DNA of 54,754 nucleotides from Bacteroidaceae bacterium (GTDB taxonomy: Bacteria > Bacteroidota > Bacteroidia > Bacteroidales > Bacteroidaceae), in NCBI GenBank assembly GCA_017541025.1, contig JAFXZY010000087.1, forward strand, positions 1 through 54,754, written 5' to 3'. The notes beneath the pieces were generated by a model that saw only the letters and a list, made by a program, of their open reading frames with translations, ran no database searches and was not told where the DNA came from. Made by a program: the position numbers and the translations under genes. Each line of letters begins with the position of its first letter. The first letter of the stretch is position 1. This document shows, in pieces, positions 4,373-54,680 of the stretch.

Positions 4373-4411
4373 AAACTGTAAACCGTAAACTGTAAACCGT
4401 AAACTGTAAAC
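4373..4411. repeat. Degenerate heptamer array (AAACTGT/AAACCGT)
   Basis: Alternating 7-bp units AAACTGT and AAACCGT make a 14-bp tandem repeat, present 2.8 times and filling almost the whole gap between the rlmI-like gene and the transporter gene. Confidence 0.85.
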
Positions 4412-4417
4412 AAAAAA

Positions 4418-5683
4418 ATGAATATAAAATATAGACTTACATTGCTGAACTTCCTGGAGTTTGCTGTCTGGGGAGCCTACCTAACTTCTATGGGAACTTA
4501 TCTTGCAGGCGTAGGATTGGGTTCTCATATAGGTTGGTTTTATTCTGTACAAGGTATCGTCAGCATTTTTATGCCTGCCTTGATGGGTATTCTGGCTGAC
4601 CGATGGATGGAAGGACAACGGGTACTTAGTCTCTGTCATGCTTTGGCAGGTGTTTTTATGATTTCTGCTTCGATATATGGTTACGAGACCGGTACTTCTG
4701 CTGAATTCGGCTTTCTCTTTTCCCTATATACTCTTTCTGTAGCTTTTTTTATGCCAACTATTGCCCTCAGCTATTCTGTTGCTTATTCTGCGTTAGAGAA
4801 GGAGGGACTGGATACTGTGAAGGCTTTTCCGCCCATACGTGTTTGGGGAACTATCGGTTTCATTGTTACCATGTGGATTGTTGACCTTTGCGGATTGCAG
4901 TCAAATTCCGGCCAATGGATGGTAAGCGGTTGCCTGAGTCTTGTTATGGCAGCATATTCTCTGACTATGCCTCGGATGCCTATTAAGAAGGGCGAACATA
5001 AGACTCTTTTCGAGGCACTCGGTTTGTATGCCTTCCGTTTATTCTTGAAACCGCGTATTGCAGTATTCTTCGCATTTGCTATGCTCTTGGGGTTCTGCCT
5101 TCAGATTTCCAACGGATACGCCAATCCTTTTATCACCAGCTTTGGCAGCATTCCTGAATATCAGTCAACCTTCGGCGTTCAGCATGCCAACATCCTTATT
5201 TCCCTTTCTCAGGTAAGTGAAACGCTTTGTATTCTGCTTATTCCATACTTCCTTTCTCGATTTGGCATTAAGAAGGTGGTACTCATCGCTTTGATGGGAT
5301 GGGTTTTACGTTTTGCATTCTTCGGATTAGGTAATCCTGGTGGTGGAGTTTGGCTCTTCCTGCTTTCGATGATTGTCTATGGCGTTGCCTTTGACTTCTT
5401 CAATATATCAGGCTCGCTGTTTATCAATCAGGAGACAGACGAGAGTATCCGCAGCAGCGCACAAGGTTTGTTTATGATGATGACCAACGGGCTTGGTGCC
5501 TTTGTGGGAACATTGGTGGCTCAGGCTGTTATCAATCATTATGTCTTTACTCCTCAGGCAGCAGGCGCTTCTGGTGCTGAAGTAATAGCTGGCTGGCAGA
5601 CCTGCTGGTACATCTTTGCCGCTTATTCCCTTGTTGTGGCAATTCTCTTTGGTCTTTTGTTTAAGAACCCTAAAGAAAATTGA
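4418..5683 (+). CDS. Nucleoside:H+ symporter family MFS transporter (NupG-like)
   Basis: A 421-residue polytopic membrane protein with about 12 hydrophobic segments. The start MNIKYRLTLLNFLEFAVWG, the loop GILADRW and the later segment FDFFNISGSLFINQETD match the nucleoside:H+ symporter (NupG/XapB) branch of the major facilitator superfamily, which imports nucleosides with protons across the inner membrane. Length fits the family (about 415-420). It follows the rlmI-like gene after a 47-bp repeat-filled gap and precedes rsmE; the neighbours do not indicate a substrate, so purine or pyrimidine preference is unknown. Other Bacteroidota members are annotated simply as nucleoside permeases. Confidence 0.8.
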   Translation: MNIKYRLTLLNFLEFAVWGAYLTSMGTYLAGVGLGSHIGWFYSVQGIVSIFMPALMGILADRWMEGQRVLSLCHALAGVFMISASIYGYETGTSAEFGFLFSLYTLSVAFFMPTIALSYSVAYSALEKEGLDTVKAFPPIRVWGTIGFIVTMWIVDLCGLQSNSGQWMVSGCLSLVMAAYSLTMPRMPIKKGEHKTLFEALGLYAFRLFLKPRIAVFFAFAMLLGFCLQISNGYANPFITSFGSIPEYQSTFGVQHANILISLSQVSETLCILLIPYFLSRFGIKKVVLIALMGWVLRFAFFGLGNPGGGVWLFLLSMIVYGVAFDFFNISGSLFINQETDESIRSSAQGLFMMMTNGLGAFVGTLVAQAVINHYVFTPQAAGASGAEVIAGWQTCWYIFAAYSLVVAILFGLLFKNPKEN

Positions 5684-5696
5684 GCCTTGAGAATTA

Positions 5697-5727
5697 AAAG
5701 TTATCGTTAACGTTATCGTTTTCGTTA
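5697..5727. repeat. Degenerate hexamer array (CGTTAN)
   Basis: Units CGTTAA CGTTAT CGTTTT CGTTAA follow each other in the gap before rsmE. The 16-mer CGTTAACGTTATCGTT (5705-5720) is found again, in the same orientation, inside clpC at 45019-45034. Confidence 0.8.
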
Positions 5728-5736
5728 AGAAAAGAA

Positions 5737-6468
5737 ATGAAAGAAACGCGATTTTTCTTTGTTCCTGATGCCAGAAGCAGGGTGGAATTACCTCAGGATG
5801 AAGCCAATCATGCAACTCGTGTGCTTCGTCTTGCAGAAGGTGGCGACTTTTTTATTATGGATGGTGAGGGATATTTCTTCCGAGCAATAATTACCGTTGC
5901 TACCAACCACCGTTGTTTGTATAAAATCATCGATATTATGCCTCAGGAGCGCGCTTGGGAAGGACATATTCATTTGGCAATGGCACCGACCAAACTTAAC
6001 GACCGTACGGAATGGTTTGCGGAGAAAGCCACAGAGATTGGTTTGGACGAACTGTCTTTCTTGGATTGCAAGTTCAGCGAACGTCGTGTCATCAAATGCG
6101 AACGTATAGATAAAATACTCATCTCGGCTGTTAAGCAGAGTCATAAGGCTTGGAAACCTATCCTCAATGAGATGACTCCCTTTGAACGCTTTGTTTAGCA
6201 AGAACGAAAAGGAGATAAATTCATTTGCCATTGTTATAATCAGGAGGATATTGGGGAAGGCGAGGAAAAACCTTTGCTGATGGATGTGCTGCGGCGTGGT
6301 GTGGAAACAACCGTTATGGTGGGACCAGAAGGCGATTTCAGCATAGATGAGGTTAGGCTGGCATTGAAGAACGGTTATCGGAGTGTATCGTTAGGGACAA
6401 GTCGGCTCAGAACAGAAACGGCTGCATTGGTGGCTGTACACATGATGCAATTAAAGAATCAGAAGTAA
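5737..6468 (+). pseudogene. rsmE: 16S rRNA m3U1498 methyltransferase with an internal amber stop
   Basis: The frame from ATG 5737 encodes the RsmE family (PUA-like N-terminus with ATRVLRL, then the SPOUT knot). It runs for 153 codons to a TAG at 6196-6198, then continues in the same frame without another stop to 6468. Together the halves make 243 residues, the normal length. The downstream part contains the family's SAM-binding knot: VGPEGDFS, then SLGTSRLRTETAA. Only the nonsense codon (TTT GTT TAG CAA GAA) interrupts it, where CAG or AAG would be one change away. The enzyme methylates N3 of U1498 in 16S rRNA. As written it lacks its cofactor site; a sequencing error or amber suppression would also explain it. 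Confidence 0.85.
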
Positions 6469-6471
6469 AAT

Positions 6472-12010: not shown

Positions 12011-15000
12011 AGATACAAGAGCTTCAGACAGTTTTCTCACGTCATCCTTCTGTTGGCAAGCTGCGTACAGCCTTGCAAAGGACTGATGTGGGTGTAATAC
12101 AGATAGACGGTCTTCATGAGAGTGCCGCCCCCTTGGTATTCTCATCACTTATAAACACCATTTCATCGGTCTGTGTGTTTATTTTGGACGATGAGGAGCA
12201 GGCAGGCTATTTCTATCACGACCTTACGCAGGTTTTGGGCGATGAAAAGGTGCTTTTTTTCCCCAGCAGTTTTAAGCGCGCCATTAAATACGGACAACGT
12301 GATGCCGGCAACGAGATCCTACGTACCGAAGTCCTAAGCGCCATAATCAATAAATCTTCAAAAGTCACTCCCCTAAAGGGGGAGACGGAGGGGGCTTTTC
12401 AACTTTACATAGTCACTCACCCTCAGGCATTAGCACAATCCGTAGTGACGCGCAAGAAGCTGTCAGAACAGACGTTATCGCTACAAGTAGGTGAGCAGGT
12501 TGATATAGTATTTGTGCAGGAAACACTTATTTCCTTTGGCTTCAGGCGAGTAGATTATGTGTATGAGCCTGGCCAGTTTGCTGTCAGAGGAAGTATATTG
12601 GATGTATATTCTTATTCCTGCGAATATCCCTATCGAATAGACTTTTTTGGCGATGAAGTGGATAGTATTCGCACATTCGAGGTCCAGACACAGCTAAGTA
12701 ATACCAAGTTGCAGCAGATTAGCATTGTTCCTGAACTGTGCTCTGAGGAGGAACAGAACGAGAGTTTTCTCTCTTTCCTACCCAAGGAGACCCTTCTGGT
12801 AATGCACGACCCCACGTTTGTAGCCGAATCAGTACAGATAGCATGGGAAGAGGGCTTCTGCCGTCAGGCTGTTACGGTGGATTCGGAGGAAAATGCTTCC
12901 TCTGAAGAAAAAGATAAACCCCTTGAAAAGGAAAAAATGCTGGTGGAACCGCAACTTTTCTGCAAAGAGTTGCTCAACTTTAGAAGAATAGAATTAGGAA
13001 ATTCTACACTTTCAACTGCCTCTAAACTCTCAACTCTACACTCTAAACTCTCCTTCCATACTCATCCTCAGCCAGTCTTCCACAAGAACTTCAATCTGGT
13101 ATTCCAAAGCTTCAATAAGTATCTTGAGGAGGGCTATCAGCTTTATATCTTAGCCGATAGTCAGAAGCAGGCGGCTCGCTTGGAGAGCATCTTTCAAGAC
13201 CAGCAGACGGGTATTACCTTTACGCCTGTTGACCATACTATTCATGCAGGTTTTGTTGATGACGACCTAAAAGTGTGCCTTTTCACCGACCATCAGATAT
13301 TTGACCGATATCATAAATATAACTTACGTAGTCAGCAGACGCGAAACGGAAAAGTTGCTCTTACCCTTAAGGAATTGCAGCAGTTCGAGATCGGCGACTA
13401 TGTGGTACATTTGGATCACGGCGTAGGAAAGTTTGGCGGATTGGTGAGAATACCCAATGGCGACAAGATGCAAGAGGTTATCAAGATTATCTATAACCAT
13501 GACGATGTGGTCTTTGTATCCATCCATGCCCTGCACAAAGTCTCTAAATATAAAGGCAAGGAAGGTGATCCGCCACGTATCAGCACGTTGGGTACTGGAG
13601 CGTGGGAACGCATGAAGGAGCGTACCAAGACCAAGATTAAGGATATTGCCCGCGACCTGATTAAGCTCTACAGCCGTAGGCGTGAGGAGAAAGGTTTCTC
13701 TTATTCCCCTGACAGCTTTATGCAGCATGAGTTGGAAGCCAGTTTCCTTTATGAAGATACCCCCGATCAGTTGAAGGCTACCCAAGATGTAAAGGCAGAT
13801 ATGGAAAGAGCGCGTCCTATGGACCGCCTGGTTTGTGGCGACGTAGGATTCGGTAAGACCGAGGTGGCTATACGTGCTGCCTTCAAAGCATGTGTTGATA
13901 ATAAACAAGTGGCTCTTTTAGTGCCCACAACCGTGTTGGCTTATCAGCATTACCGTACCTTTACATCTCGTCTTAAGGACTTCCCTGTAAAAGTGGAGTA
14001 TCTGAGTCGTGCCCGTTCTTCAGCCAAGACCAAAGAAATCCTTGAAGGTCTGAAAAACGGAACCGTAAACATCGTAATTGGTACACATAAGCTCATAAGC
14101 AAGAGTGTGCAGTTTAAGGATTTGGGCTTGCTGATTATAGATGAAGAACAGAAGTTTGGCGTCAGCACCAAGGAGAAACTACGCCAGATGAAAGTGAATG
14201 TAGATACCTTAACGCTTACAGCAACACCCATTCCGCGTACCTTACAGTTCAGCTTGATGGGAGCTCGTGACCTAAGCGTTATTCAAACGCCACCTCCCAA
14301 TCGTTATCCCATTCAAACACAACTCAGCGTATTCAGCTCAGAGGTTATTGCCGAGGCAATTAACTTTGAGATGAGCCGTAATGGCCAGGTATTCTTTGTG
14401 AATAATCGCATCAGCAATCTGCCTGATTTGGAGGCACTCATTCACAAGCATGTGCCTGATGCACGAGTGGCTATAGCACATGGGCAGATGCCTCCAGAGA
14501 CACTCGAGAACATTATGATGGGCTTTGCCAACTATGATTATGATGTGCTACTCTCCACCACTATTATTGAAAGCGGGCTGGATATCCCCAATGCCAATAC
14601 CATCATTATTAATAGCGCACAGAACTTTGGGCTGAGCGACCTTCATCAGATGCGTGGCAGGGTGGGGCGCAGCAACAAGAAAGCCTTCTGCTATTTGCTT
14701 TCACCTCCCATGAGTTCCTTGAACATCGATGCACGCCGACGTTTGCAGGCGATAGAAAACTTCTCCGACCTTGGCAGTGGCATTCATATAGCTATGCAAG
14801 ACCTTGATATTCGAGGTGCAGGAAACCTCTTGGGTGCAGAACAGAGCGGTTTCATCGCCGATTTAGGTTACGAGGCATACCAGAAGATTCTCTCACAAGC
14901 AGTCAAGGAATTACGTAACGATGAGTTCCAAGACCTGTATAAGGAAGAGGTAAAGGCTGGTAATATTACCAGCGGAACGGACTTCGTGGAGGAATGCATT

Positions 15001-18077: not shown

Positions 18078-20768
18078 ATGAACTTGTTGGATTTAATTAA
18101 GAGACGTTATTTCTTTCTCGCTGGCTATTTGACATCAAGTGTTTTATGCCTGAGTGCGCAGGTTGAGGGCCCGACCATGGGGTGGAGCTCGTGGAATACT
18201 TTTGCCGTTAACATCTCTGAGAATATAATTAAAGGACAAGCTGACGCTATGGTCTCTCAGGGGCTGAAGGATGCTGGCTATCAGTATATTAATATAGATG
18301 ACGGCTTTCAATATGGCCGTCTATCCAACGGTAAGGTGCGCATTCATCCTCAGCGCTTTCCTAACGGACTGAAGGTAGTAAGTGATTACATTCACTCTAA
18401 GGGTCTTAAGGCAGGTATATACAGCGATGCTGGCGACTGCACTTGTGGAAGCATCAGTAACGGCGATACGCAGAACACTAATGTCGGCATGTATGGCTAT
18501 GAACAGTTGGATGCCGACTATTATTTCAAAGAGTGTGAATTCGACTTCATTAAGGTGGACTATTGCGGAGGCCGTCATTTGAATCTGAACGAGCAAGAGC
18601 AATATACAACTATCCACAATGCTATCGTGAATACAGGCCGTGACGTACGCTACAACCTGTGTCGATGGGCATACCCGGGTACGTGGTGCCATGACATCTC
18701 TACTTCGTGGCGGACAACGGGTGATATTTATGACGGATGGGCCTCTGTAAAGGGTATCTTGGCAGAGAATCTGTATCTTTCGGCTTACTGCTATGGCGGC
18801 ACCTACAACGATATGGATATGCTTGAGGTAGGGCGTTCTATGTCGGAGGAAGAGGACAAGACGCACTTTGGTATGTGGTGTATTATGTCCAGTCCCTTGC
18901 TGATTGGTTGTAATATGGCTACCATTAAGGACCGCCCGTTGGCGTTGCTGAAGAACCCCGAACTGATAGCCCTGAATCAGGATCCCTTGGGCTTGCAGGC
19001 TTACGTGGTACAGCATGTGGGCGAAACATACGTGTTGGTTAAGGATATTCTTACGTTGCACGGCAATACGCGTGCAGTGGCGCTCTATAATCCCTCTGAT
19101 AGGGAAGAGGAGATGTGCATCAGTTTCAGCGAGGTAGACTTAGGCGGCAATGTAAAGGTGCGCGACCTCTTTGAACATCAAGACTTGGGAGAGAAGGAAG
19201 GTTCGCTTTTCGTTGTGGTTCCACCACATGGAACACGCATCTACAAGTTGGAAGCAGAGAAGCGTCTGGATCGTTATATCTATGAGGCCGAGACTGGCTT
19301 CATGCACGACTATCAGGAAATCTATAACAATCAGTCGGTAGGCTCTGCTATCTATGAGACCAACTCTGCAGCCAGCGGAGGTGCCTATGCCAGTTGGCTA
19401 GGTGGAAAGAGAAGTAACTCGTTGTTATGGCGCGATGTGTTTGTGGCAGATGAGGGCGATTATATGGTTCATTTCTGTGGCAGTTCTGCTGAAGCTCGTT
19501 CGTTAAATGTTGTACTGAACGGCGAGGAGATGGGAAAGATAAATATGAATACGTCTAACTGGTCGACTTTCAAAGAGTACAATATGACGCTTCACCTCAA
19601 TGCGGGTTCCAACAGTATAGAACTGTATAACGAGAAGGGATGGATGCCCAACATGGATTATATGAGTTTGGAGAAGGCAGGGGAGAGCACTATTCTGACC
19701 CGTAAGTTAGAAGAGGCTGTTTACCATCTTGAGGTGTTAACTCATAACGAATTGATGCCAAATAAGTTACGTAAGAATGTTGAAAGTCTTTTGGCAAGAG
19801 CCCAGGCAGAGGGATTGACAGAGTCTAAGATAAAGACGATACTTACAGAAGTGCAGAATATACAGAATAACATTGCCAAGATTATGCCGCTCTGTGATGA
19901 GTACATTTTCTGGAAAGCCTATGCCGAAAAAAATGTTCAGGCCAGCATGGAATCTTCTGCTCTTGCATCTTTTGTGAAGAAAATTGCAAATTCTGAGTCC
20001 ACGCTCTCGCAAGCGACAACAGAATCACAGGCTAGTACGGCGCTGAACAACTTGAAGTCGGCGGTAACAACGTATCTGAAAGCCTCGTCGGCTGTGCCAA
20101 AAGAGGGTGAATATCTGGATATGACGCTCTTTATAGCCAACTATGACTTTTCTGCCAAAGAAGGATGGGAGGGAGAACCGACCTATCGTGATGGTTGTGG
20201 CGAGGAATTCAATAAGTCGTTTGACATGTATCAGACGCTTGCCAGTATGCGCCCAGGTGTATATACTGTCCGTTGCAATGCGTTCTATCGTACAGGAGGC
20301 AATGATGGCGGTGCTGCGTATCGCTCAAAGAAAGAAAACATACAGGCTTATCTTTACATTAATAATAAGGTGAAGAAACTGAAATCATTATATTCCGAGA
20401 TGTGGCCCGATGCTGCTCAGTATGGCTCTGTAGATAATCAGAATGGATATCCGCATAGTATGCGTGCTGCCGGGATTCGGTTTGCTGAAGGCTGTTACCC
20501 AAATGAGGTGGCTTATACGTTGCAGGAGAAAGGAACGTTGCGTTTTGGTCTAAAATGCGACAAAAACAATGGCAGCAGTTGGTGCTGCTTTGATAACTTC
20601 TCTCTGCTATATCAGCCCCTGCCTGATTATTATGATGGAATGGAATCAATTCATAATTCACAATTCATAATTCACAATAATGACACTTACGACCTTACTG
20701 GACGTAAAGTCAATCCTCAACAACAAAGGGGCATTGTAATAAAGGACGGAAAGAAGATGGTAAAATAA
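18078..20768 (+). CDS. Secreted GH27 alpha-galactosidase with CBM and T9SS-type C-terminus
   Basis: An 896-residue exported enzyme. After a signal peptide (to about residue 28) comes the GH27 barrel: GWSSWNTFA at the start, nucleophile Asp161 in FIKVDYCGG and acid/base Asp247 in YNDMDMLEVG. It removes terminal alpha-galactose. A beta-sandwich domain follows (about 285-400), then a CBM35/CBM6-like module (about 405-535, YIYEAETGFM), helical linker segments and a further sandwich. The C-terminus TYDLTGRKV..GIVIKDGKKMVK is type IX secretion-like. A 14-bp tandem repeat inserts IHNSQFIIHNN just before this tag. Divergent from the GH5 gene, so the pair probably acts on a galactose-decorated plant polymer outside the cell. 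Confidence 0.85.
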   Translation: MNLLDLIKRRYFFLAGYLTSSVLCLSAQVEGPTMGWSSWNTFAVNISENIIKGQADAMVSQGLKDAGYQYINIDDGFQYGRLSNGKVRIHPQRFPNGLKVVSDYIHSKGLKAGIYSDAGDCTCGSISNGDTQNTNVGMYGYEQLDADYYFKECEFDFIKVDYCGGRHLNLNEQEQYTTIHNAIVNTGRDVRYNLCRWAYPGTWCHDISTSWRTTGDIYDGWASVKGILAENLYLSAYCYGGTYNDMDMLEVGRSMSEEEDKTHFGMWCIMSSPLLIGCNMATIKDRPLALLKNPELIALNQDPLGLQAYVVQHVGETYVLVKDILTLHGNTRAVALYNPSDREEEMCISFSEVDLGGNVKVRDLFEHQDLGEKEGSLFVVVPPHGTRIYKLEAEKRLDRYIYEAETGFMHDYQEIYNNQSVGSAIYETNSAASGGAYASWLGGKRSNSLLWRDVFVADEGDYMVHFCGSSAEARSLNVVLNGEEMGKINMNTSNWSTFKEYNMTLHLNAGSNSIELYNEKGWMPNMDYMSLEKAGESTILTRKLEEAVYHLEVLTHNELMPNKLRKNVESLLARAQAEGLTESKIKTILTEVQNIQNNIAKIMPLCDEYIFWKAYAEKNVQASMESSALASFVKKIANSESTLSQATTESQASTALNNLKSAVTTYLKASSAVPKEGEYLDMTLFIANYDFSAKEGWEGEPTYRDGCGEEFNKSFDMYQTLASMRPGVYTVRCNAFYRTGGNDGGAAYRSKKENIQAYLYINNKVKKLKSLYSEMWPDAAQYGSVDNQNGYPHSMRAAGIRFAEGCYPNEVAYTLQEKGTLRFGLKCDKNNGSSWCCFDNFSLLYQPLPDYYDGMESIHNSQFIIHNNDTYDLTGRKVNPQQQRGIVIKDGKKMVK
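20647..20677 (+). repeat. 14-bp tandem repeat (two heptamers) in frame in the GH27 gene
   Basis: CAATTCATAATTCA occurs twice head to tail (20647-20660, 20661-20674). Period 7: ATTCATA ATTCACA. It encodes IHNSQFI IHNN directly before the secretion-tag motif YDLTGRK. Confidence 0.8.
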
Positions 20769-20779
20769 AGTTTAATCCA

Positions 20780-20871
20780 GTTTACTGTTTACCGTTTACT
20801 AAATTCTATAACCTCTAACCTCTAACCAATAACCTCTAAAAACTGTCTCTAACCGCTAACCCCTAACCGCT
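20780..20871. repeat. Heptamer arrays between convergent genes
   Basis: The 106-bp gap between the GH27 and nudC stop codons is almost entirely degenerate 7-bp units: GTTTACT GTTTACC GTTTACT, then AACCTCT AACCTCT AACCAAT AACCTCT, then TAACCGC TAACCCC TAACCGC TAACC. No U-tract terminator is visible. Confidence 0.8.
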
Positions 20872-20874
20872 AAC

Positions 20875-21624
20875 CTATTCTAAAAGCCAGTCATCAATCA
20901 GACGACGGGCTATAGATGCCTTGTCTGGAATCTCGGGCATGTTATCGCGAGTGAACCAGTTGCCCTCGCACAGCTCTTCTTTCTGAAGGTTCAGTTCGCC
21001 TCCGTCATATTCTGCGGTGAATCCTACCATCAGACCAAAGGGGTAGGGCCAAGGCTGGCTGCCAAAATAACTCAGATTCTTAATATTAATGCCCACCTCC
21101 TCGCGTACCTCGCGTGCTACACATTGCTCCAAGGATTCCCCAGTCTCTAAGAAGCCTGCTACCAAGCCATAATGGTTTCCTCTGAAGTTGCGTGCCCTGA
21201 CCAACAGGATGCGGTTGTCTCGCTGAATGCGTACAATAATCGCTGTAGCTGCTGAGGGCCACCATTCTTTGCCACATTCCGTGCACTTCTTGCTGATATC
21301 GGTCATCCATTTGTTGGTGCCACCGCATACACCGCAATAACGTGTGTTCTGGTCCCAATACAATAGCTCAGCTCCCTTGCCTGCCAGTTGGTAATCTTCG
21401 GGGCAAAGAATGGCATGTGTTTTACGCAAACCAACCATCTGAAGCCGTTCTTTGCCGACAATGGGATTATCCAGGCGGATAATCTTAACCTCATCGTCTC
21501 CCGAGTGCAATGTGGTAATGTAATTCCACTCTTTGAGTGGGATGGGAGGCTCCAAACCAAAGGGGATAGTCCCCTCTGTTGTGAGAAGAATATCCCCTTG
21601 GCAATATGCTAAATATTTAATCAC
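20875..21624 (-). CDS. nudC: NAD(+)/NADH diphosphatase (NudC-like Nudix hydrolase)
   Basis: A 249-residue protein with the NudC layout: an N-terminal domain, a four-cysteine zinc ribbon (CGVCGG and CTECG), the Nudix box GFLETGESLEQCVAREVREE and the NADH-diphosphatase signature SQPWPYPFGLM downstream. Enzymes of this type cleave NADH to NMNH and AMP and can remove NAD caps from RNA. The second half of the Nudix box (REVREEVGI) carries the metal-binding glutamates. It lies 10 bp after the phosphohexomutase gene on the same strand and so is probably its operon partner, and it converges on the GH27 gene. Confidence 0.9.
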   Translation of the reverse strand: MIKYLAYCQGDILLTTEGTIPFGLEPPIPLKEWNYITTLHSGDDEVKIIRLDNPIVGKERLQMVGLRKTHAILCPEDYQLAGKGAELLYWDQNTRYCGVCGGTNKWMTDISKKCTECGKEWWPSAATAIIVRIQRDNRILLVRARNFRGNHYGLVAGFLETGESLEQCVAREVREEVGINIKNLSYFGSQPWPYPFGLMVGFTAEYDGGELNLQKEELCEGNWFTRDNMPEIPDKASIARRLIDDWLLE

Positions 21625-34666: not shown

Positions 34667-34672
34667 GTATAT

Positions 34673-34702
34673 AAAGTTTAAAGTTTAAAGATTGTGTGCT
34701 AT
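34673..34702. repeat. AAAGTTT heptamers plus a copy of the exuT palindrome half-site
   Basis: AAAGTTT AAAGTTT AAAG (34673-34690) is followed directly by ATTGTGTGCTAT (34691-34702). That 12-mer is identical to one arm of the palindrome at the exuT promoter (38282-38293), which raises the possibility of a second regulator site within the operon. Confidence 0.55.
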
Positions 34703-38864: not shown

Positions 38865-40790
38865 TTACAGTGTCTCGCATTCTTTTAGCCATATAGCAGA
38901 TGAGGCATCAGTTGGCATACGCCAGTCGCCGCGTGGCGAGAGTGAACAACTTCCCACCTTTGGCCCGTCGGGCAGACAACTGCGCTTGAATTGCTGCGCA
39001 AAGAATCGGCGATAGAAGGTTTTGAGCCAGTGCTTTATTACATCATCTGTATATGCTGTGCCAAAGGCTTCCTTGGTCAGGAAGAACACTTTCCCAGGAC
39101 GGAATCCCCATCTTAGCGTATAGTACAGGAAGAAGTCGTGAAGTTCGTATGGTCCCACAAGGTCTTCTGTCTTTTGTGTGATATTGCCATTATCATCGGC
39201 AGGGATAAGTTCTGGGCTGATAGGCGTGTCTACAATATCCCTCAGAATGGTTCTTGTGCTATCGTCTTCTATGCCCCAAGCTACCCATTTTACCAAATGG
39301 CGAACCAGGGTTTTGGGGACGGAAGTGTTTACGCCATACATACTCATGTGGTCTCCGTTGTAAGTAGCCCAACCCAAAGCCAACTCGCTCAGGTCACCCG
39401 TTCCTATAACCAGACCGTTCATCTGGTTGGCAGCATCCATCAGAATCTGGGTACGCTCGCGAGCCTGTGAATTCTCGTACGTAACATCATGATTATTCAT
39501 GTCGTGTCCTAAATCCTTAAAGTGCTGGATGCACGCATCCTTGATGCTAATCTCCCGTATGGTGATTCCCAATAGCTTCATTAGATTTACTGCATTGGTA
39601 TAGGTGCGGTCGGTAGTGCCGAATCCTGGCATTGTAATTCCTACTATACCTCTACGATTAAGGCCTAACCTGTCAAATGCTTTTACGCATACCAGCAGTG
39701 CCAAGGTGCTGTCCAAGCCTCCGCTGATGCCTATCACCACGGTCTGCACATTGGTGTGACTGATACGCTTGGCAAGTCCCTCGGTCTGTATGCTGAAGAT
39801 TTCCTCGCAACGTTCGTCAAGACCTTTGCCTGTTGGAACAAACGGATGGGCATTTATCTTTCTTGTCAGGTTGAACTCGCGTGTCACGGTTCTTTCTGTA
39901 TCTATAATAACAGCTGTGTCCTTACGCGACAGGGAGGCACAAGTGGCAAACGTGGTATTAATACGACGCTCCATTCTGATGCGCTCCACATCAATCTCCG
40001 TTTCCAGTAATTGCGTGCTCAGCTCATGACGAGGTGTTTCAGCCAGCAGCATTCCATTCTCATAGATAAGCCCCTTAGCGCTGTACACCACATCCTGTGT
40101 ACTCTCACCGTATCCGCAGCTGCTAAAGACGTAGCCTGATATGGTTCGGGCACTCTGTTGTTCCAGCAGACTCTTCAGATAAGAGTATTTACCAACCAAG
40201 TCGTTGTCGGCACTTAGGTTGAAGATGATTTCTGCCCCTTGCATAGCCAGATAACTGCTGGGAGGGATGGGTGCCCACACATCTTCGCAGATCTCCACGC
40301 CGAACGTGCAAGATGGTGTGCGGAACAGAATGAGCTGGTTCAGGGGAACCTGCTGCCCGCATATCAGCAGCAAACCGGCAGGTATGTCGGTCCCGCTTGT
40401 GAACCAACGTTTTTCGTAAAATTCCTTGTAGTTGGGCAGATAGGTTTTGGGAATCATTCCCAGAATCTTACCTTTCTGAATAACGGCAGCGCAATTCAGA
40501 AGCGAGCCCTTGTAAGGCACAGGCAGCCCCACAATACTGATGATATCCAAACTACGGGTAAAGTTCATCAGGTGTATGAGGGCCATTTCTGCTTCATCCA
40601 AGAGGAGTTGCTGCTGAAAGAGGTCCTGACACGTATATGCCGTGAGCGAGAGCTCTGGCAGACAGATGATTTCTACGCCATGTCCTTCTGCCTGAACGAT
40701 GAGCGATTCTATCTGCTCTACGTTATATTGGCAATCAGCAACCTTTACAGAAGGGATTGCAGAAGCTACTTTTACAAATCCGTGGTTCAT
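38865..40790 (-). CDS. nadE: Glutamine-hydrolysing NAD+ synthase
   Basis: A 641-residue two-domain enzyme. The N-terminal nitrilase-type glutaminase has its triad in CLPELSL (Glu46), GMIPKTYLPN (Lys115) and GVEICEDVW (Cys168). The C-terminal ATP-pyrophosphatase synthase has the P-loop IGISGGLDSTLAL and GTGDLSELALGW. It makes NAD+ from nicotinate adenine dinucleotide with glutamine as nitrogen donor. Length is in the range for the glutamine-dependent form. It follows htpG by 52 bp, with a heptamer array in between, so co-transcription is possible. Confidence 0.95.
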   Translation of the reverse strand: MNHGFVKVASAIPSVKVADCQYNVEQIESLIVQAEGHGVEIICLPELSLTAYTCQDLFQQQLLLDEAEMALIHLMNFTRSLDIISIVGLPVPYKGSLLNCAAVIQKGKILGMIPKTYLPNYKEFYEKRWFTSGTDIPAGLLLICGQQVPLNQLILFRTPSCTFGVEICEDVWAPIPPSSYLAMQGAEIIFNLSADNDLVGKYSYLKSLLEQQSARTISGYVFSSCGYGESTQDVVYSAKGLIYENGMLLAETPRHELSTQLLETEIDVERIRMERRINTTFATCASLSRKDTAVIIDTERTVTREFNLTRKINAHPFVPTGKGLDERCEEIFSIQTEGLAKRISHTNVQTVVIGISGGLDSTLALLVCVKAFDRLGLNRRGIVGITMPGFGTTDRTYTNAVNLMKLLGITIREISIKDACIQHFKDLGHDMNNHDVTYENSQARERTQILMDAANQMNGLVIGTGDLSELALGWATYNGDHMSMYGVNTSVPKTLVRHLVKWVAWGIEDDSTRTILRDIVDTPISPELIPADDNGNITQKTEDLVGPYELHDFFLYYTLRWGFRPGKVFFLTKEAFGTAYTDDVIKHWLKTFYRRFFAQQFKRSCLPDGPKVGSCSLSPRGDWRMPTDASSAIWLKECETL

Positions 40791-40798
40791 TCTTAAAT

Positions 40799-40826
40799 CG
40801 GTTAGCGGTTATGGGTTAGCGGTTAG
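40799..40826. repeat. Heptamer array (CGGTTAG)
   Basis: Four units in register, CGGTTAG CGGTTAT GGGTTAG CGGTTAG, lie in the htpG-nadE gap. Confidence 0.8.
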
Positions 40827-40842
40827 AGACTGTTATTTTTTT

Positions 40843-42937: not shown

Positions 42938-45466
42938 TTAGGAATTGACAGGTATAATTCTTATTTTTTCTTTGTCCTCGGAATCTACAGTAGCCTGGAG
43001 TGCTGAGCTATGTTCATCTTGCATCAGCACATCGCACAAGGGGTCTTCCAGCATGGTTTGCAGGATACGTTTTAGCGGACGGGCTCCGTACTGCACATCA
43101 TAACCCTTCTTACCCAACAATTGACGTGCCTCTGGCGTCACCTCTAACGTTACGCCCAAATCTTTCAGACGATGGAGTAGGGGGTTCAGTTCTATGTCCA
43201 CAATTTTCCTGATGCTCTCCTCGCTGAGCTGGTCAAAGTAGATGATGTCATCCAAACGGTTCAGGAACTCAGGCGCAAACTGCTTCTTAAGGGCCTTCTG
43301 CACCAAGTCTCTGCTCAGTTGCTTGTTTTGGCTGGCATCTGTTCCGTTCTGGAATCCTACGCCCCTGCCGAAATCCCTGATCTGTTTAGTACCGCAGTTC
43401 GAGGTCATTACTATGATGGTGTTCTTAAAGTCGATGGTGGAACCGTTGCCGTCCGTCATTCTTCCTTCGTCCATCATTTGTAGCAGGATGTTGAATACGT
43501 CGGGGTGAGCCTTCTCTATTTCGTCTAACAGGACTATGCTGTAAGGCTTGCGGCGTACTTTCTCTGTCAGTTGTCCGCCTTCCTCAAATCCCACGTATCC
43601 TGGAGGCGCACCCACCATGCGGCTTACGGTATGCTTCTCCATGTACTCGCTCATATCTATTCGTATGATGCTGTCGGCAGAGCCGAACATCTCCTGTGCC
43701 AGACATTTGGTAAGATAGGTCTTTCCCACGCCGGTAGGACCTACAAACATAAACGTACCTATGGGCTTCTTGGGGTCTTTAAGGCCGATTCTGCTGCGCT
43801 GAATGCTCCTGGCAATGGTCTGAATGGCATCATCCTGTCCTATTACGGCATTCTTCAGATTGCTGGCCAGATTCTTCAGCTTATGGTTTTCCTCTTCGCC
43901 GATTCGCTGAACGGGAATGCCCGTCATCATGCTGATCACATCAGCCACAACAGTCTCATCCACTATGGGTCTATTTTCTTTTATGCGAGCCTCCCAATCT
44001 TTCTGTAGTTCCTGCAGAGCATTTTCCATGTTCTTTATTTTATCGCGATATTCGGCGGCCAGTTCAAAGTGCTGCTCTTTCACAGCCATATTCTTTTGCT
44101 TCTGCAGTTCGGCTATGTGCGTCTCTAATTGTGTTATTTCATCCGGAACAGGGATATCCTGAATGTGAATACGGCTGCCCGCCTCATCCATGGCATCTAT
44201 AGCCTTGTCAGGGAAGCAGCGTTCCGTAACGTATCTGCCTGTCAGATACACGCAGGCATCCAGTGCCTCGGGTGTATATTTAACGGTATGATGTTCCTCG
44301 TAGCGGTCTTTTAGGTTTTGCAGAATCAGCAGTGTCTCTTCAGGCGTTGTGGGTTCCACCATTACCTTCTGGAAACGTCTGTCCAGCGCACCGTCTTTCT
44401 CTATCGACTTACGGAACTCATCCGTTGTGGTAGCGCCTATACATTGGAATTCCCCGCGGCTCAGTGCTGGTTTCATCATGTTGGCTGCATCCATCGAGCC
44501 TGCTGCGGCTCCAGCGCCCACAAGGGTGTGAATCTCGTCTATGAAGACAATAATATCAGGATTCTTCTTCAGTTCCAGGATGATGCTGCGCATACGTTCC
44601 TCAAACTGTCCACGGTATTTTGTTCCAGCCACTACGCTGGCCATATCCAGTACTATTACACGCTTGTTCCACAGCAGATGGCTTACTCTATGCTGCACTA
44701 TACGCTGTGCCAAGCCCTCCACAATGGCGCTCTTGCCCACGCCAGGCTCTCCTATAAGGATGGGGTTGTTCTTCTTCCTGCGGCTCAGAATCTGAGCTAC
44801 GCGCTCTATTTCTTTCTGGCGGCCTATCACGGGGTCAAGTAGTCCTTCAGCTGCGGCCAATGTCAGGTCTGTTCCGAAATTGTCCAGAACAGGCGTCTTA
44901 CTGTTGCTGCCCGCTTTCTTCTTTATCTGTATTATAGAGAGGGCCCCAGTATCATCACCCTGAGCGGCTTCCCTTTCGTCATCCTCATCCTCGTTTTCCT
45001 CATCCTCGTTTTCGTTTTCGTTAACGTTATCGTTGAGTTTAAGAATCTGTGCTATAGCCTGATAGGTAATGTTCATGCGTTCAAGAATCATACTGGCGTC
45101 GCTGTCGCCTAATTTCAGCAGGGCTAACAATACATGTATAATGTATATAGAGTCCGACTTCATGGACTTAGCCTCCAGCACACACACTCTCAGGATGCGT
45201 GATGCCGTCATGTCAAAGCCCATGTCAGCCAGCGATGGCGGTACCAGCACCTGTTTCTGTTTGGCCATAGCCTCCAGTTCCTGCTTCAGCAGTGATAGGT
45301 CGGGCTGTAGTTGCAGCAGGGCATCCCTGGCAGGATTCTGGTCTTTTTGTCGCAAGATTGCCAGTAGCAGGTGCACGGGTGTCACACTTTCGTTGTGCAG
45401 GCGTTCAGCTTCTTCCTTACTGAATGCCAGCACTGTATTTAATTCTGGTGAAAACTTTATTGTCAT
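42938..45466 (-). CDS. clpC: Clp protease ATP-binding subunit ClpC
   Basis: An 842-residue Hsp100 chaperone. Two Clp-N repeats (to about residue 150), an acidic linker, AAA+ module 1 (Walker [11 protein letters not shown] near residue 243, Walker [12 protein letters not shown]), a UVR-type coiled segment ([15 protein letters not shown]), and AAA+ module 2 (Walker [11 protein letters not shown] near 575, [12 protein letters not shown]). It unfolds substrates for ClpP. The acidic linker ([20 protein letters not shown]) is encoded by the same hexamer words that occur between genes at 5.7 kb. It heads a unit with htpG; the promoter has good boxes at 45573-45604. A ClpP-binding loop (GF/L type) is not obvious to me. 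Confidence 0.93.
45005..45034. repeat. Hexamer array in frame in clpC
   Basis: CGTTTT CGTTTT CGTTAA CGTTAT CGTT in register; the 16-mer CGTTAACGTTATCGTT equals the intergenic word at 5705-5720. On the coding strand it gives alternating Asn with Glu/Asp/Val. Confidence 0.8.
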
Positions 45467-51994: not shown

Positions 51995-53383
51995 ATGGAC
52001 AACGAAGCTTTCAATTTGGTGAAGGGTAGGCTGGCTATACACAACCAGGCTGCCAAGAAGCTCACGCCTTGCGATGAACTGCTGCAATATAGGGTTATGC
52101 CTGAAACAGAATTGCCTCCATTGGAGTTCCTGTTCAAGATGAACGGAGTGGAATGTTTCCCGCGTGCTGAACTTGTGGCAAATACAGGAAAGGCAAAGAG
52201 TGGTAAAACGTTCTTCCTGTCTATTGTTATGGCCTGCTGCCTGAAGAAAAATGTGCTAGGCTTAGAGCGAGTACGAGACACCCCCATTCGTGTCTTGTGG
52301 TACGATACTGAACAAAGTGCCCAGTCAACACAGAAAATTCTTGTCAATCGCATCATCCCTCTTTCGAGATGTAAGAAGGAAGAAGGAAGATGTCAGAAGG
52401 AAGAGGGAATCAACCTTAACCTTAACCCTGAAGAAGGAAGATGTCAGAAGGGAGAAGAATCTCAACTAAACGACCAGTTCTTTGTTTTTAATGTCCGGGG
52501 TATCGGTTGGGAGAAACGGCGTGAACTCTTAGCTACTGCTATTAATGAGATTAAGCCAGATTTGGTGATAGTGGACGGAATCAAAGACCTGATAACTGAT
52601 ATCAATGACGGTACTCAGGCAACAACAGTTGTTGAAGATCAGATGGGACTGGCACAGACTTACAACTGCTGCATTGTGGATGTTCTTCACCAGAACAAGA
52701 ATGATGCAGACCGCAATATGCGTGGCTGGATTGGAACAGAGCTGACAAACAAGGCTTTTGAGGTATGGTCGTGTGCCATTGTATCCAATACAGACACCTT
52801 TAAGGTGGAGCAGATTATGTCTCGAATGAAGCGCTGCGAGGAGAATCTTTACTACCAGCTTGATGACAATGCACTGCCCGTTTCCTGCCAGAAACCCGAC
52901 GAACAGCCACGCGACCCTGCCAGTGGTAGGTATATTTCAAAAAAGAATGACAAAACAGGAGATGAAAAGAAACAAAAATTCAAGGTTGACTGGGCTAAGT
53001 TGAACTGTGATTATATCCTGCCAAATGATAGTAAGGAACCTATGGCTCCAGAGGATATCCCATGGGATTTGGGAAGGCTGTTTACGGATGCCATGGAGGG
53101 ATGTTCTTTCTTGCGTTTTGCTCCGTTAATGGCAGCAACTATGCGCATCTCTTGTATCGAGGACCGCAATTACTATTACCAACTGTTGGAGCGTGCAAAG
53201 AAAGAGCATTATCTGACACCCGGAAAGGATATGTCTGGTCAGCAGGGATTCTATCTAGTCACACCAGATCAGCGTAAACGTATCCTTGCTACCGAGGAAG
53301 AGGAGCTCCGCAAACAGCAGGAACCTGTACAGGGTGAACTTCCCTTCAATAAACCAGAAGAAAATGGAACCGCTCCCTTCTAG
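51995..53383 (+). CDS. RepA-like AAA/RecA-fold ATPase of a mobile element
   Basis: A 462-residue protein. A RecA-type ATPase core has Walker A GKAKSGKTFF (about residue 65), the segment LWYDTEQSAQST, and Walker B DLVIVDGIKDL; it resembles RepA/DnaB-like helicases carried by Bacteroidota plasmids and integrative elements. The C-terminal third (YYYQLLERAKKEHYL, ending QGELPFNK) looks like a winged-helix DNA-binding region. Between IIPLSR and the next conserved block FFVFNVRGIGWEKRRELL is a repeat-encoded insert with CKKEEGR CQKEEGI units, encoded by heptamers. It is followed by a large hairpin and a toprim gene, together a replication module. Confidence 0.8.
   Translation: MDNEAFNLVKGRLAIHNQAAKKLTPCDELLQYRVMPETELPPLEFLFKMNGVECFPRAELVANTGKAKSGKTFFLSIVMACCLKKNVLGLERVRDTPIRVLWYDTEQSAQSTQKILVNRIIPLSRCKKEEGRCQKEEGINLNLNPEEGRCQKGEESQLNDQFFVFNVRGIGWEKRRELLATAINEIKPDLVIVDGIKDLITDINDGTQATTVVEDQMGLAQTYNCCIVDVLHQNKNDADRNMRGWIGTELTNKAFEVWSCAIVSNTDTFKVEQIMSRMKRCEENLYYQLDDNALPVSCQKPDEQPRDPASGRYISKKNDKTGDEKKQKFKVDWAKLNCDYILPNDSKEPMAPEDIPWDLGRLFTDAMEGCSFLRFAPLMAATMRISCIEDRNYYYQLLERAKKEHYLTPGKDMSGQQGFYLVTPDQRKRILATEEEELRKQQEPVQGELPFNKPEENGTAPF
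52371..52456 (+). repeat. Heptamer array in frame in the RepA-like gene
   Basis: Units GTAAGAA GGAAGAA, GGAAGAT GTCAGAA, GGAAGAG, then a hexamer block ACCTTA ACCTTA, then TGAAGAA GGAAGAT, GTCAGAA GGGAGAA. A 22-bp segment is repeated exactly at 52379-52400 and 52430-52451. The peptide has a seven-residue period. Confidence 0.85.
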
Positions 53384-53385: not shown

Positions 53386-53458
53386 AGCCCCTCCCCCTAT
53401 ATATCGCCCTTTTTTATTTGAATATAAAAAAAGGGCTAGAGAGATATATATAGGGGCT
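53386..53458. other. Large hairpin between the RepA-like and toprim genes
   Basis: Outer arms AGCCCC/GGGGCT, middle arms CTATATATC/GATATATATAG and inner arms GCCCTTTTTTAT/ATAAAAAAAGGGC pair in order, with short bulges, giving a stem of about 25 pairs around a small loop. It could be an attenuator or terminator, or a DNA hairpin used in replication (for example a single-strand origin). The A/T runs beside the inner stem allow termination on either strand. Confidence 0.65.
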
Positions 53459-53502
53459 ATGTCTGAAGGCCGCCGAGCCGAGCAAAAAAGGAAAAGAGAG
53501 TT

Positions 53503-54465
53503 ATGAAGCCATTAAAAGAATTGTTGGAACGCTGTTCGTTCAAGACTATAGGACGTAGTATGAATCTTGATGTATCTCTCATCAATGGAAAACTCTACAT
53601 CAGCCCTCTAACTACAGACATCAATCATCATCTTGACTTCGCCCTTCCCTCCATGAAGATGGTTGAGGCATGTAGGGCTGACGATTTCGATTTCTTCCAG
53701 CCCTTCATAAATGCCGGTAAACTAACAGAAGAGAATATGCACCACGCCGCAGAGCGCTATTACTTAGGCAAGACCAGAAGCGGCAAACCCATCTACTGGA
53801 TGATAGATGACACGCTGGACCCTCAAGATGCTCGCATAGTAAACCAAGATAACTCCGACACTTGGATGTCAACACTCCTGAAAGCCCGCGAGCCTTTCAT
53901 CCAGTATTGGTGCCCTACACACTGCCTGTTTGGCCTGCATTTGTTGAGGGAAGATGGAAGAAGTAAGATGGAAGAGGGTAGAATTAAGATGGCTGATGGA
54001 AAAAATAATGTTCAATGTTGGCCTTCGGCCGAGCCTGCTCACGCTCGGGATAGCCTAAGCAAGCTTAGCTCTCCTCTCGCTCAATCGCAGCCTTCAACGT
54101 TCAATGTTCAATGGAAGCCTAGCATTTGCATCGTAGAGAGCGAACAGGCTGCCGTGGTGCTGAGTGAGTTGTTTCCCGAAAGTATCTGGATGGCGTATGC
54201 TACGGTGGCACATTTGCAGGTCGACCTCTTTGCCCCATTAGAAGGATGCACCGTAACGCTATTTCCCTGTACTGACCCCTATATGTCCAACTATCTTTTC
54301 TTTAATGACCTTGCGGCAGCGGTTCACAAGCAGTATCCCTCCATCCATATCACCGTGGATCCCATTCTGGAGGATAATGCCACAGACGAACAAAAGTCCC
54401 GCTGCATAGATCTCGTAGACTTCTTATTTGAAGGACAACCCCTTCAAAAGGTTCAAGAAGTTTAA
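53503..54465 (+). CDS. Toprim-domain protein (DUF6371-like, primase-type) of a mobile element
   Basis: A 320-residue protein. The segment AERYYLGKTRSGKPIYWMID and FIQYWCPTHCLFGLHLLR resemble the DUF6371 family found beside RepA-like ATPases; the following ICIVESEQAAVVLSELFPES and VTLFPCTDPY are the two toprim motifs (ExxxA and the acidic DxD-like site, here Asp-Pro). The family is thought to prime or process DNA in Bacteroidota mobile elements. Between LLR and KPSICIVESE about 50 residues are encoded by repeats (heptamers, then GC-rich words). The last codons and the stop come from the first copy of the 48-bp direct repeat at 54451. Confidence 0.7.
   Translation: MKPLKELLERCSFKTIGRSMNLDVSLINGKLYISPLTTDINHHLDFALPSMKMVEACRADDFDFFQPFINAGKLTEENMHHAAERYYLGKTRSGKPIYWMIDDTLDPQDARIVNQDNSDTWMSTLLKAREPFIQYWCPTHCLFGLHLLREDGRSKMEEGRIKMADGKNNVQCWPSAEPAHARDSLSKLSSPLAQSQPSTFNVQWKPSICIVESEQAAVVLSELFPESIWMAYATVAHLQVDLFAPLEGCTVTLFPCTDPYMSNYLFFNDLAAAVHKQYPSIHITVDPILEDNATDEQKSRCIDLVDFLFEGQPLQKVQEV
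53951..53999 (+). repeat. Seven heptamers in frame in the toprim gene
   Basis: AAGATGG AAGAAGT, AAGATGG AAGAGGG, TAGAATT AAGATGG, CTGATGG in exact register. They encode GRSKMEE GRIKMAD, a seven-residue period. Confidence 0.85.
54008..54112 (+). repeat. Second repeat block in the toprim gene (palindromic GC words plus GTTCAAT units)
   Basis: GTTCAAT words flank both ends (54009, 54095-54110). In between lie GGCCTTCGGCC (a palindromic word), GAGCCTGCTCACGCTCGG and CTAAGCAAGCTTAG, all of which pair with themselves. No stop codon arises in the used frame. Confidence 0.7.
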
Positions 54466-54498
54466 GGGTTCAAGGGGTTTAAGACTTTGGCCCTTGGC
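54451..54498 (+). repeat. 48-bp direct repeat, copy 1
   Basis: Begins GTTCAAGAAGTTTAAGGG and is identical over 48 bp to 54548-54595. It starts inside the last codons of the toprim gene and supplies its stop. Confidence 0.85.
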
Positions 54499-54517
54499 TA
54501 TTGGCTTTAATAACGTT

Positions 54518-54538
54518 AACCTTAACCCTAACCTTAAC
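54518..54538 (+). repeat. Hexamer array (AACCTT)
   Basis: AACCTT AACCCT AACCTT AAC in register; the inverse GTTAAG words occur at 54657-54680, so the two arrays form an inverted pair about 120 bp apart. Confidence 0.7.
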
Positions 54539-54547
54539 TGGTTAAGA

Positions 54548-54595
54548 GTTCAAGAAGTTTAAGGGTTCAAGGGGTTTAAGACTTTGGCCCTTGGC
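54548..54595 (+). repeat. 48-bp direct repeat, copy 2
   Basis: Exact second copy, 49 bp after the first. It lies in the 289-bp gene-free end of the window, which otherwise holds AAGCTATT and hexamer words and no frame I can support. Confidence 0.85.
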
Positions 54596-54656
54596 CATTG
54601 GCTATTCCATTAACCTACTAAGCTATTAAGCTATTAAGCAGATAAGCTCTTGAACA

Positions 54657-54680
54657 GTTAAGGTTAAGGTTATGGTTATC
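54657..54680 (+). repeat. Hexamer array (GTTAAG)
   Basis: GTTAAG GTTAAG GTTATG GTTATC in register, the reverse of the AACCTT array at 54518; followed by GTTAACGTTAGCGTT near 54690, like the words at 5.7 kb. Confidence 0.7.

What the first reader, a model, noticed from the sequence alone, without database searches (positions are those of the whole stretch)
4373..54680. Degenerate heptanucleotide arrays fill gene gaps and also sit in frame inside proteins
Arrays with a 7-bp (sometimes 6-bp) period occur in gaps at 4373, 5697, 20780, 25381, 34673, 40799 and 54518, each with its own sequence word. Arrays of the same kind lie in frame in mfd (13002), GH27 (20647), clpC (45005), the RepA-like gene (52371) and the toprim gene (53951). 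The words differ, so this is not one repeat family but one mode of making repeats: constant period, drifting sequence. Three 7-bp units are 21 nt, so a coding array gives a peptide with a seven-residue period, and such peptides are seen. Cyanobacterial short tandemly repeated repetitive sequences are the nearest known parallel. The mechanism (slippage, a polymerase, or a mobile agent) is unknown.
Basis: partly seen in the sequence, partly recalled or inferred. Interest (0 to 1): 0.8.

Follow-up and report, generated by a model that had tools for sequence, protein, structure and literature searches.

The report
Seven-base repeat arrays invading genes
A bacterium related to goat-rumen microbes has a genome peppered with short, sloppy seven-letter DNA repeats that sit between genes and in the loops of proteins, and that appear, change and vanish faster than the genes around them.

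Summary
Of the 12 listed places, 7 are period-7 arrays, 3 have period 6 or 15/21, and 2 fall below threshold. In 0.98 Mb of the same genome there are 101 lag-7 arrays, against 0 in Markov and triplet-shuffled controls and 0-16 at the other lags from 4 to 13. 67 are intergenic, 22 lie inside called genes, 12 at edges.

The words are not independent. Two arrays share a word about 11 times more often than random non-coding heptads, and equally often between two species. In the sister species (about 128 kb compared) only 10 of 33 classified sites keep a shared word. Inside genes 7 of 8 length changes keep the frame, against 5 of 19 elsewhere. Arrays favour linkers, signal regions and a C-terminal tail loop, often lengthened by 7 residues. 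Load varies from 0 to 614 among 139 congeners and does not track reverse transcriptases, Y1 transposases or mutS loss.

Best reading: tandem-repeat birth and slippage with the heptamer bias already known in bacteria, unusually fast here and filtered by reading frame. New variant of a known kind. No dedicated agent was found.

The parts
4372..4411 (.). intergenic array TAAACTG/TAAACCG, 5.7 units, between a 398-aa ORF and a Nuc_H_symport gene
   Evidence: its 14-mer pattern has 8 matches in the genome; sister species has a different composite of elements here, with a short remnant of the same word
5699..5727 (.). intergenic period-6 array GTTATC/GTTAAC
12997..13060 (+). in-frame array TCTAAAC/TCAACTC in mfd (about aa 331-351), between the UvrB_inter and CarD/RID domains
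   Evidence: a palindrome stands here in G093; other words, palindromes or plain sequence in 29 other species
20647..20678 (+). in-frame array AATTCAT/AATTCAC near the C-terminus of the GH27-type protein, outside its Pfam domains
   Evidence: identical in G093
20785..20878 (.). intergenic arrays TTTACTG/TTTACCG, TAACCTC, TAACCGC
   Evidence: identical in G093
34672..34690 (.). short AAAGTTT run, below threshold in the window; longer array in G093
40799..40826 (.). intergenic array CGGTTAG between an HSP90-family gene and the next gene
   Evidence: identical in G093
44974..45034 (-). in-frame period-6/15/21 array in clpC (aa 145-165), after a Clp_N stretch ending at aa 142 and before the first AAA domain
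   Evidence: differs by 9 nt and 3 nt from G093
52367..52472 (+). in-frame GA-rich heptad array AAGAAGG with an AACCTT run, in the AAA_25 (RepA-like) gene
   Evidence: a 21-nt step, a 12-nt step and a TTCAATG array separate it from G093
   Evidence: a paralogue in the sister genome carries a TCAACTG array there instead
54511..54700 (.). intergenic period-6 TAACCT, 17-nt and 8-nt arrays
   Evidence: about 97 nt of it absent from the sister genome

Best explanation
These are degenerate short tandem repeats born and lost at a high rate at places where extra DNA does no harm. Step 1 (inferred): a seed of one and a half to two units, either a chance heptad or a fragment carried over from another array, is extended by replication slippage in 7-nt steps; period 7 is favoured by the replication machinery, as already proposed for bacterial heptamer repeats. 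Step 2 (shown as pattern): units drift by point mutation, so arrays become composites of neighbouring words. Step 3 (shown): arrays are replaced wholesale, by other heptad words or by palindromic elements, while flanking DNA changes by only about 8%. Step 4 (shown as pattern, selection inferred): in genes only frame-keeping, stop-free versions survive, mostly in linkers, signal regions and loops; because 7 and 3 share no factor, a stop-free heptad array encodes the same 7-residue peptide in any frame, which makes it unusually tolerable. No dedicated enzyme or mobile agent is needed or was found.
For: Period specificity: runs of three or more exact copies in non-coding DNA number 49 at k=7, 5 at 6, 3 at 8, 2 at 4 and at 14, 1 at 5, 9, 12 and 15, 0 at the other k up to 30; one Markov sequence gives 2 at k=4 and 0 from 5 to 30. 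Location: 67 of 101 arrays in 111 kb non-coding, 22 in 873 kb coding, 12 at edges. Frame: 7 of 8 non-zero differences in genes are multiples of 3, against 5 of 19 elsewhere; in the mfd linker 29 of 29 relatives keep the frame while length and content vary. Sites: GH97 array at aa 296-310 between the Pfam envelopes 8-296 and 312-567; N-terminal positions in a CotH and an S46 peptidase protein; between Pfam envelopes in AIRS, mfd and clpC, just before an OEP envelope; but within the envelope in RmlD and IMS proteins. Tail loop: 8 of 16 lag-7 loops exactly 15 aa. 21-nt steps between species at window 32935, L080:1543 and the AAA_25 gene. mutS is full-length in the window's genome and in the highest-load genome G153. 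Turnover: 33 sites, 4 identical (one an AT-rich run), 6 same word, 1 near word, 6 different words, 16 with a detectable array in one species only.
Against: Only 3 of 27 length differences between orthologous sites are multiples of 7, so unit-number slippage is not the main visible change; block replacement is, and its mechanism is not shown. Word sharing (0.021 and 0.028 within, 0.022 between species, against 0.0019 for random non-coding heptads) is more than local seeding predicts and hints at copying or at a word bias; shared multi-word blocks of at least 26 nt exceed a shuffle 11 to 2.9, but three of the 11 pairs are copies of one duplicated region. Why load runs from 0 to 614 within one genus is not explained.
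Confidence: 0.55

Rival explanations
1. Array blocks move: short pieces of existing arrays are copied to new permissive sites by illegitimate or short-homology recombination, then slip and drift locally. The word pool is a family tree, not independent births.
For: Words shared about 11 times above the seed expectation and equally within and between sister species; a 33-nt block shared by the window at 4369 and L027, and junctions between two words shared; DNA of the mfd array matches many places in other species (capped listing); a foreign array nested inside an array at L084:10763 (by eye).
Against: Excess of shared blocks over unit shuffles is modest, and the longest, 36-nt block extends into shared flanks, so it is a duplicated region; similar words (TAAATCG, TCAACTT, TAAACCA) also occur in other families of the class, which suits a word bias as well.
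Confidence: 0.25
2. A mobile or enzymatic agent makes the arrays, for example a reverse transcriptase, a REP-associated tyrosine transposase or a telomerase-like activity that adds heptads.
For: Constant period with a wide range of words; huge load differences between congeners.
Against: The window's genome (84% complete) has no detectable RVT_1 and no Y1_Tnp; load does not rise with either (median 27.5 in 42 genomes with RVT_1 and 44 without; 27 in 26 genomes with Y1_Tnp at E < 1e-15 and 43 in the rest, which include 36 genomes with weaker Y1_Tnp matches). A single template cannot explain so many words.
Confidence: 0.1
3. Selected functional elements: arrays are spacers, stop-codon barriers between genes, or protein-binding sites, kept because of what they do.
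For: 97 of 101 words (94 of 102 in G093) carry a stop codon on at least one strand, against 71% expected from composition.
Against: Words and presence turn over between sister species; 13 of 139 congeners have none by the pattern used; no clear preference for convergent, divergent or tandem gene pairs and no strand preference (no formal test).
Confidence: 0.07
4. Assembly or binning artefact of a metagenome-assembled genome.
For: Both compared genomes are fragmented drafts; short repeats can be mis-assembled.
Against: The 101 arrays cover 5415 bases, 54 each on average; several are identical, with flanks, in the draft genome of another species; coding arrays mostly keep frame.
Confidence: 0.03

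Closest known systems
Heptamer SSRs over-represented in many bacterial genomes (a 2007 study, seen only as cited in passages of PMC4692102)
   Same: Period-7 excess, with a proposed polymerase-slippage cause tied to the DNA segment held by the polymerase
   Different: Here arrays are degenerate and multi-word, 22 of 101 lie inside called genes, and turnover between sister species is measured
TAACTGA heptamer repeats of Beggiatoaceae, Cyanobacteria and five Bacteroidetes (PMC4679880; abstract, outline and sections 9, 10, 15 read)
   Same: 7-nt direct repeats, other heptamers mixed in in some genomes, stops in every frame of one orientation, coding copies mostly at protein edges, indels mostly in 7-nt steps between two Cyanothece strains, no mechanism evident
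   Different: One dominant word there, and in the focal genome close before start codons; here 58 words, TAACTGA not among them, and a median 63 nt before a start
Cyanobacterial short tandemly repeated repetitive (STRR) heptanucleotides (listing only; details recalled)
   Same: Degenerate tandem heptanucleotides dispersed through a genome
   Different: Lineage and words; coding invasion not compared
GGGAATC heptamers of Xanthomonas and GGGGA(C/T)T of Nostoc (PMC4692102, passages)
   Same: Heterogeneous heptads, mostly between the same genes in two close relatives, with length and sequence variation
   Different: G-rich quadruplex formers; here mostly A+T-rich words
Tandem repeats of Borg elements (PMC9879509, abstract and outline only)
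   Same: Fast-evolving tandem repeats in gaps and in frame inside proteins
   Different: Extrachromosomal archaeal elements; unit length not compared
Rickettsia palindromic elements (recalled; papers that name them seen only in the listing)
   Same: In-frame insertion of repeats into proteins
   Different: Palindromic; the arrays here are not, though palindromic stretches share the same sites

Membership tests
Bacterial heptamer tandem repeats (STRR-like) | tandem units with a 7-nt period above chance | tested here: met
   101 lag-7 arrays against 0 in two controls
Bacterial heptamer tandem repeats (STRR-like) | dispersed at many loci, mainly intergenic | tested here: met
   67 of 101 intergenic, 22 in genes, 12 edge
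Bacterial heptamer tandem repeats (STRR-like) | one or a few fixed words (as recalled for STRR) | tested here: not met
   58 canonical words among 137 arrays at the looser threshold, the commonest 9 times
TAACTGA repeats | word TAACTGA | tested here: not met
   its canonical form is absent from the 58 words listed for 137 arrays
TAACTGA repeats | immediately upstream of start codons (focal genome) | tested here: not met
   median distance before a start 63 nt (59 cases), after a stop 74 nt (63 cases)
REP/RAYT elements | Y1 transposase in the genome | tested here: not met
   no match in the window's genome, 84% complete
Retron, DGR or other RT-made DNA | RVT_1 gene in the genome | tested here: not met
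   no match in the window's genome, 84% complete
Slippage-type variable-number repeats | unit-number differences between close relatives | tested here: inconclusive
   21-nt steps at three sites, but 3 of 27 length differences are multiples of 7
Slippage-type variable-number repeats | polymorphism within a strain or population | not testable with these tools
   no reads or strain sets of this species were at hand
T9SS C-terminal sorting tails as host of arrays | match to TIGR04183 or PF18962 | tested here: inconclusive
   no hit at E <= 0.01 in 7 whole proteins; sub-threshold matches in 2 of 6 tails (TIGR04183 19.8 and 16.4 bits, cut-off 23; PF18962 16.7 and 13.2, cut-off 27); the family has 11 matches somewhere in this genome

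The most novel reading that the evidence does not exclude
Some species of this genus carry an unrecognised activity that writes heptad arrays from a shared vocabulary into permissive sites, including signal regions and surface-protein tails. It would be a built-in generator of new protein loops whose 7-nt step gives the same peptide in every reading frame.
Probability: 0.1. Interest if true: 0.85.

Novelty: new variant of a known kind. Interest (0 to 1): 0.52.

Why it matters
It gives a natural experiment on an open question, why bacterial tandem repeats prefer a 7-nt unit: 139 congeneric species whose load by one pattern runs from 0 to 614. It also shows repeat DNA being turned into protein: linkers and tail loops are rewritten between sister species while the rest of the protein stays. 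Gene callers, domain models and strain comparisons in this part of the Bacteroidales will meet these arrays often.

Tried and rejected
Mismatch-repair loss: mutS1 is over its cut-off in 128 of 139 genomes, including the window's and the highest-load one; load does not differ where it is missing or partial (11 genomes). Reverse transcriptase and Y1 transposase as makers: no positive link with load. For Y1_Tnp 62 of 139 genomes matched at E <= 0.001; I counted only the 26 with E < 1e-15 as carriers.

Pure block-copy model: shared complex blocks of at least 26 nt, 11 against a mean of 2.9 and a maximum of 5 in 8 shuffles; suggestive only, and 3 of the 11 are one duplicated region. A first version of that shuffle was too harsh on the null and was dropped.

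Strand or neighbour preference: none clear. Coding orientation: of 22 coding arrays, 13 have a consensus open only in the coding strand, 6 open only in the other, 2 open in both, 1 in neither; too few to claim.

Reversed-pattern control: it also fits heptads, so it is not a clean negative control and was not used as one.

IMG/VR scans: 27 and 36 stretches hold a 22-nt array of two common words against 5 for the first pattern read backwards; the stretches have further arrays, but host flanks cannot be excluded, so no claim of phage spread is made.

Loop statistic: one search found 51 tail loops by a regular expression in the genus sequence I passed to it; 34 have 9 or more residues, and 16 of these have lag-7 identity of at least 0.55 (lengths 9, 14, 15 x8, 16 x3, 19, 22, 23). 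The other 18 of the 34 include 21 aa x4 and 34 aa x7 of other tail types. The lag-7 value of the 17 loops of 7-8 aa was not looked at. Three of the 15-aa loops are neighbouring paralogues on one contig, so they are not independent. The binomial values printed for the loops used a hand-picked list of 18 and ignore this; they are not relied on.

The first mfd comparison gave a span for only 13 of 29 relatives because the script did not turn loci on the minus strand; one search repeats it with all 29.
Full report
WHAT IS THERE. The window is one whole contig (C29, 54,754 bases) of a 3.28-Mb draft genome in 95 contigs. Its closest relative found, G093, is about 92% identical over 44 kb and is the goat-reticulum MAG RGIG3417 (JAFSRW01, 'Bacteroidaceae bacterium'): the stretch L151 contains L033 letter for letter. 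The five coding arrays are in frame in open genes without stops.

MORE THAN CHANCE. I took 0.98 Mb of the genome in 60 pieces (the window plus pieces of at most 20 kb; about 30% of the genome, mostly the first 20 kb of contigs C1-C55, so not a random sample). Segments with at least 22 of 28 matches at lag k number 101 at k=7, 14 at 6, 16 at 8, and 0 at 4, 5, 10 and 13; one order-4 Markov sequence and one triplet shuffle give 0 at every lag from 4 to 30. The peaks at 14, 21 and 28 are taken as harmonics; lag 22 (15 segments) is mostly other repeats. Runs of three or more exact copies in non-coding DNA: 49 at k=7, 5 at 6, 3 at 8. The sister genome shows the same: 102 arrays in 0.51 Mb. One piece each from 20 genomes of other families of the order (0.26 Mb) holds one array; of 12 loci with organism names (L035-L046) one, a Prevotella MAG, holds three and 11 hold none. 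A 12-kb piece of the highest-load congener G153 holds four, one of the zero-load G120 none.

WHERE THEY LIE. With a simple hexamer-based gene caller of my own (784 genes, 88.7% coding), 67 arrays are intergenic, 22 inside genes and 12 at edges; non-coding DNA is 111 kb and coding 873 kb. Lag-7 arrays cover 3.8% of non-coding DNA. Other periods exist with words of their own (6: AACGAT and kin; 8: TTTTAACN; 9: TTTAACTTC, CTCTTGAAC; 11) but are much rarer.

ONE POOL OF WORDS. Two lag-7 arrays of the genome share a canonical heptad with probability 0.021 (0.028 in G093), arrays of the two species with 0.022, random non-coding heptads with 0.0019 and composition-matched random heptads with 0.0017. 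A 14-mer pattern of the array at 4372 has eight matches in the genome, its reversed control none. A search with the mfd gene as DNA brought up, besides mfd itself, many short matches confined to the array (query 993-1046) in other species and elsewhere in this genome (listing capped). 97 of 101 words carry a stop codon on at least one strand, against 71% expected from their composition.

FAST TURNOVER. About 131 kb align with G093, of which about 128 kb were scanned for arrays (one 3.3-kb stretch was left out): 35 array sites. Of the 33 classified (two skipped as long regions), 4 are identical, 6 share a word, 1 has a near word, 6 different words, and 16 a detectable array in one species only. 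By eye several of the last group have sub-threshold runs or palindromic elements in the other species. At L080:10916 the two alleles have the same length but one reads a decayed TTCAATG and the other TCAACTC; at L080:13973 a heptad array faces palindromic inserts. In the mfd linker all 29 relatives examined could be read: the span is a multiple of 3 in 29 of 29, from 27 nt shorter to 15 nt longer than in the window; lag-7 identity is 0.45 or more in 4 (L049, L054, L059, L062, of more than one word), six look like GC-rich palindromes by eye (L056, L058, L066, L070, L072, L073), and the rest look plain or decayed; G093 has a palindrome there. The identical sites in the window lie in stretches that match G093 without a mismatch, which suggests recent recombination between the species (inference).

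READING FRAME AND PROTEIN SITES. Between G000 and G093, 7 of 8 non-zero length differences at sites wholly within a called gene are multiples of 3 (the exception, 52 nt at L096:17214, sits at a doubtful gene start), against 5 of 19 elsewhere. Twenty-one-nt steps occur at window 32935, L080:1543 and in the AAA_25 gene. Of the 22 coding arrays, 7 sit in a tail of the form YDLSGR-loop-GIYIVNGKKV. In the genus sequence passed to, 51 such loops were found; 16 carry a lag-7 array and 8 of these are exactly 15 residues, while 17 loops have 7 or 8. The tail looks like a type IX secretion sorting signal, but 7 whole proteins gave no hit and of six tails two reached only sub-threshold scores, so that name is a likely reading, not a test passed. 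Elsewhere arrays fall between Pfam envelopes (GH97 at 296-310 between 8-296 and 312-567; AIRS; mfd; clpC), just before an OEP envelope, in N-terminal signal-like regions (a CotH protein, an S46 peptidase) or at C-termini; two lie within a Pfam envelope (RmlD, IMS); four of the 15 proteins scanned had no family. Since 7 is prime to 3, a heptad array gives the same cyclic 7-residue peptide in all three frames (arithmetic).

DISTRIBUTION. One degenerate pattern of three heptads (TMAAHYN)3 was counted in all 139 held species of the genus: median 42 matches, 13 species none, 32 with 5 or fewer, 17 with 200 or more, maximum 614; the window's genome has 309. In the 295 other genomes of the phylum sample the largest sum I see in the listing is 114 (G368), and 96 of all 296 have none. 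The pattern covers only part of the words, and overlapping matches are counted, so these are indices, not array counts.

WHAT DRIVES IT. Load is not linked with RVT_1 (42 genomes, median 27.5, against 44), with strong Y1_Tnp (26 genomes, 27 against 43) or with missing or partial mutS (11 genomes, 28 against 42.5); the window's genome has no detectable RVT_1 or Y1_Tnp and a full-length mutS. These tests ignore phylogeny and incompleteness of the drafts. Published work already notes that heptamers are over-represented among bacterial simple repeats and offers polymerase footprint and slippage as the cause (passages of PMC4692102). The heptamer paper on Beggiatoaceae (PMC4679880; abstract, outline and sections 9, 10, 15 read) describes TAACTGA and mixed heptamer arrays also in five Bacteroidetes, stop codons in all frames of the forward orientation, coding copies mostly at protein edges, and mostly 7-nt indels between two Cyanothece strains. 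What is added here is the scale in one genus, the shared vocabulary with drift, the measured turnover, and the reuse of the same protein loops by different words and by palindromes. I found no paper on this genus's arrays in seven library searches, which cover only open-licence PMC papers and of which I read listings, not all papers.

VERDICT. Real, strong and only partly explained. I hold slippage-driven birth with frame filtering as most likely (0.55), copying of array blocks next (0.25), a dedicated agent at 0.10. The weak point of the favoured view is that most visible change is block replacement, not a change in unit number.

Noticed in passing
window 12344-12399; 23707-23775; G093 alleles at 4371, 12997, 30669: GC-rich inverted-repeat stretches (CCCCTTTAGGGG, GGGGGAGACGGAGGGGGC and kin) sit in frame in genes and share sites with the heptad arrays; the one in mfd matches several places in other species.
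   Followed up: partly
window 54030-54100: A GC-rich block (GGCCTTCGGCCGAGCCTGCTCACGCTCGG...) inside the DUF6371 gene insert; its 18-nt core occurs three times in the 0.98-Mb sample.
   Followed up: partly
window 20632-20892 and 40785-40840 against G093: Stretches without a mismatch between two genomes that are otherwise about 92% identical, which suggests recent recombination between species.
   Followed up: no
L110:17577-18929: A Y-family polymerase gene (IMS, DUF4113) itself carries an in-frame TTCAATG array inside its IMS domain envelope.
   Followed up: no
window 5737-6468: The reading frame after the nucleoside symporter gene is split by a stop at about 6196-6198 (two ORFs, 5737-6198 and 6280-6468); it may be one broken gene. 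Described only.
   Followed up: no
L033 and L034 (RGIG3417): Two copies of the DUF6371 gene in one genome, with different array words at the same place in the gene.
   Followed up: partly
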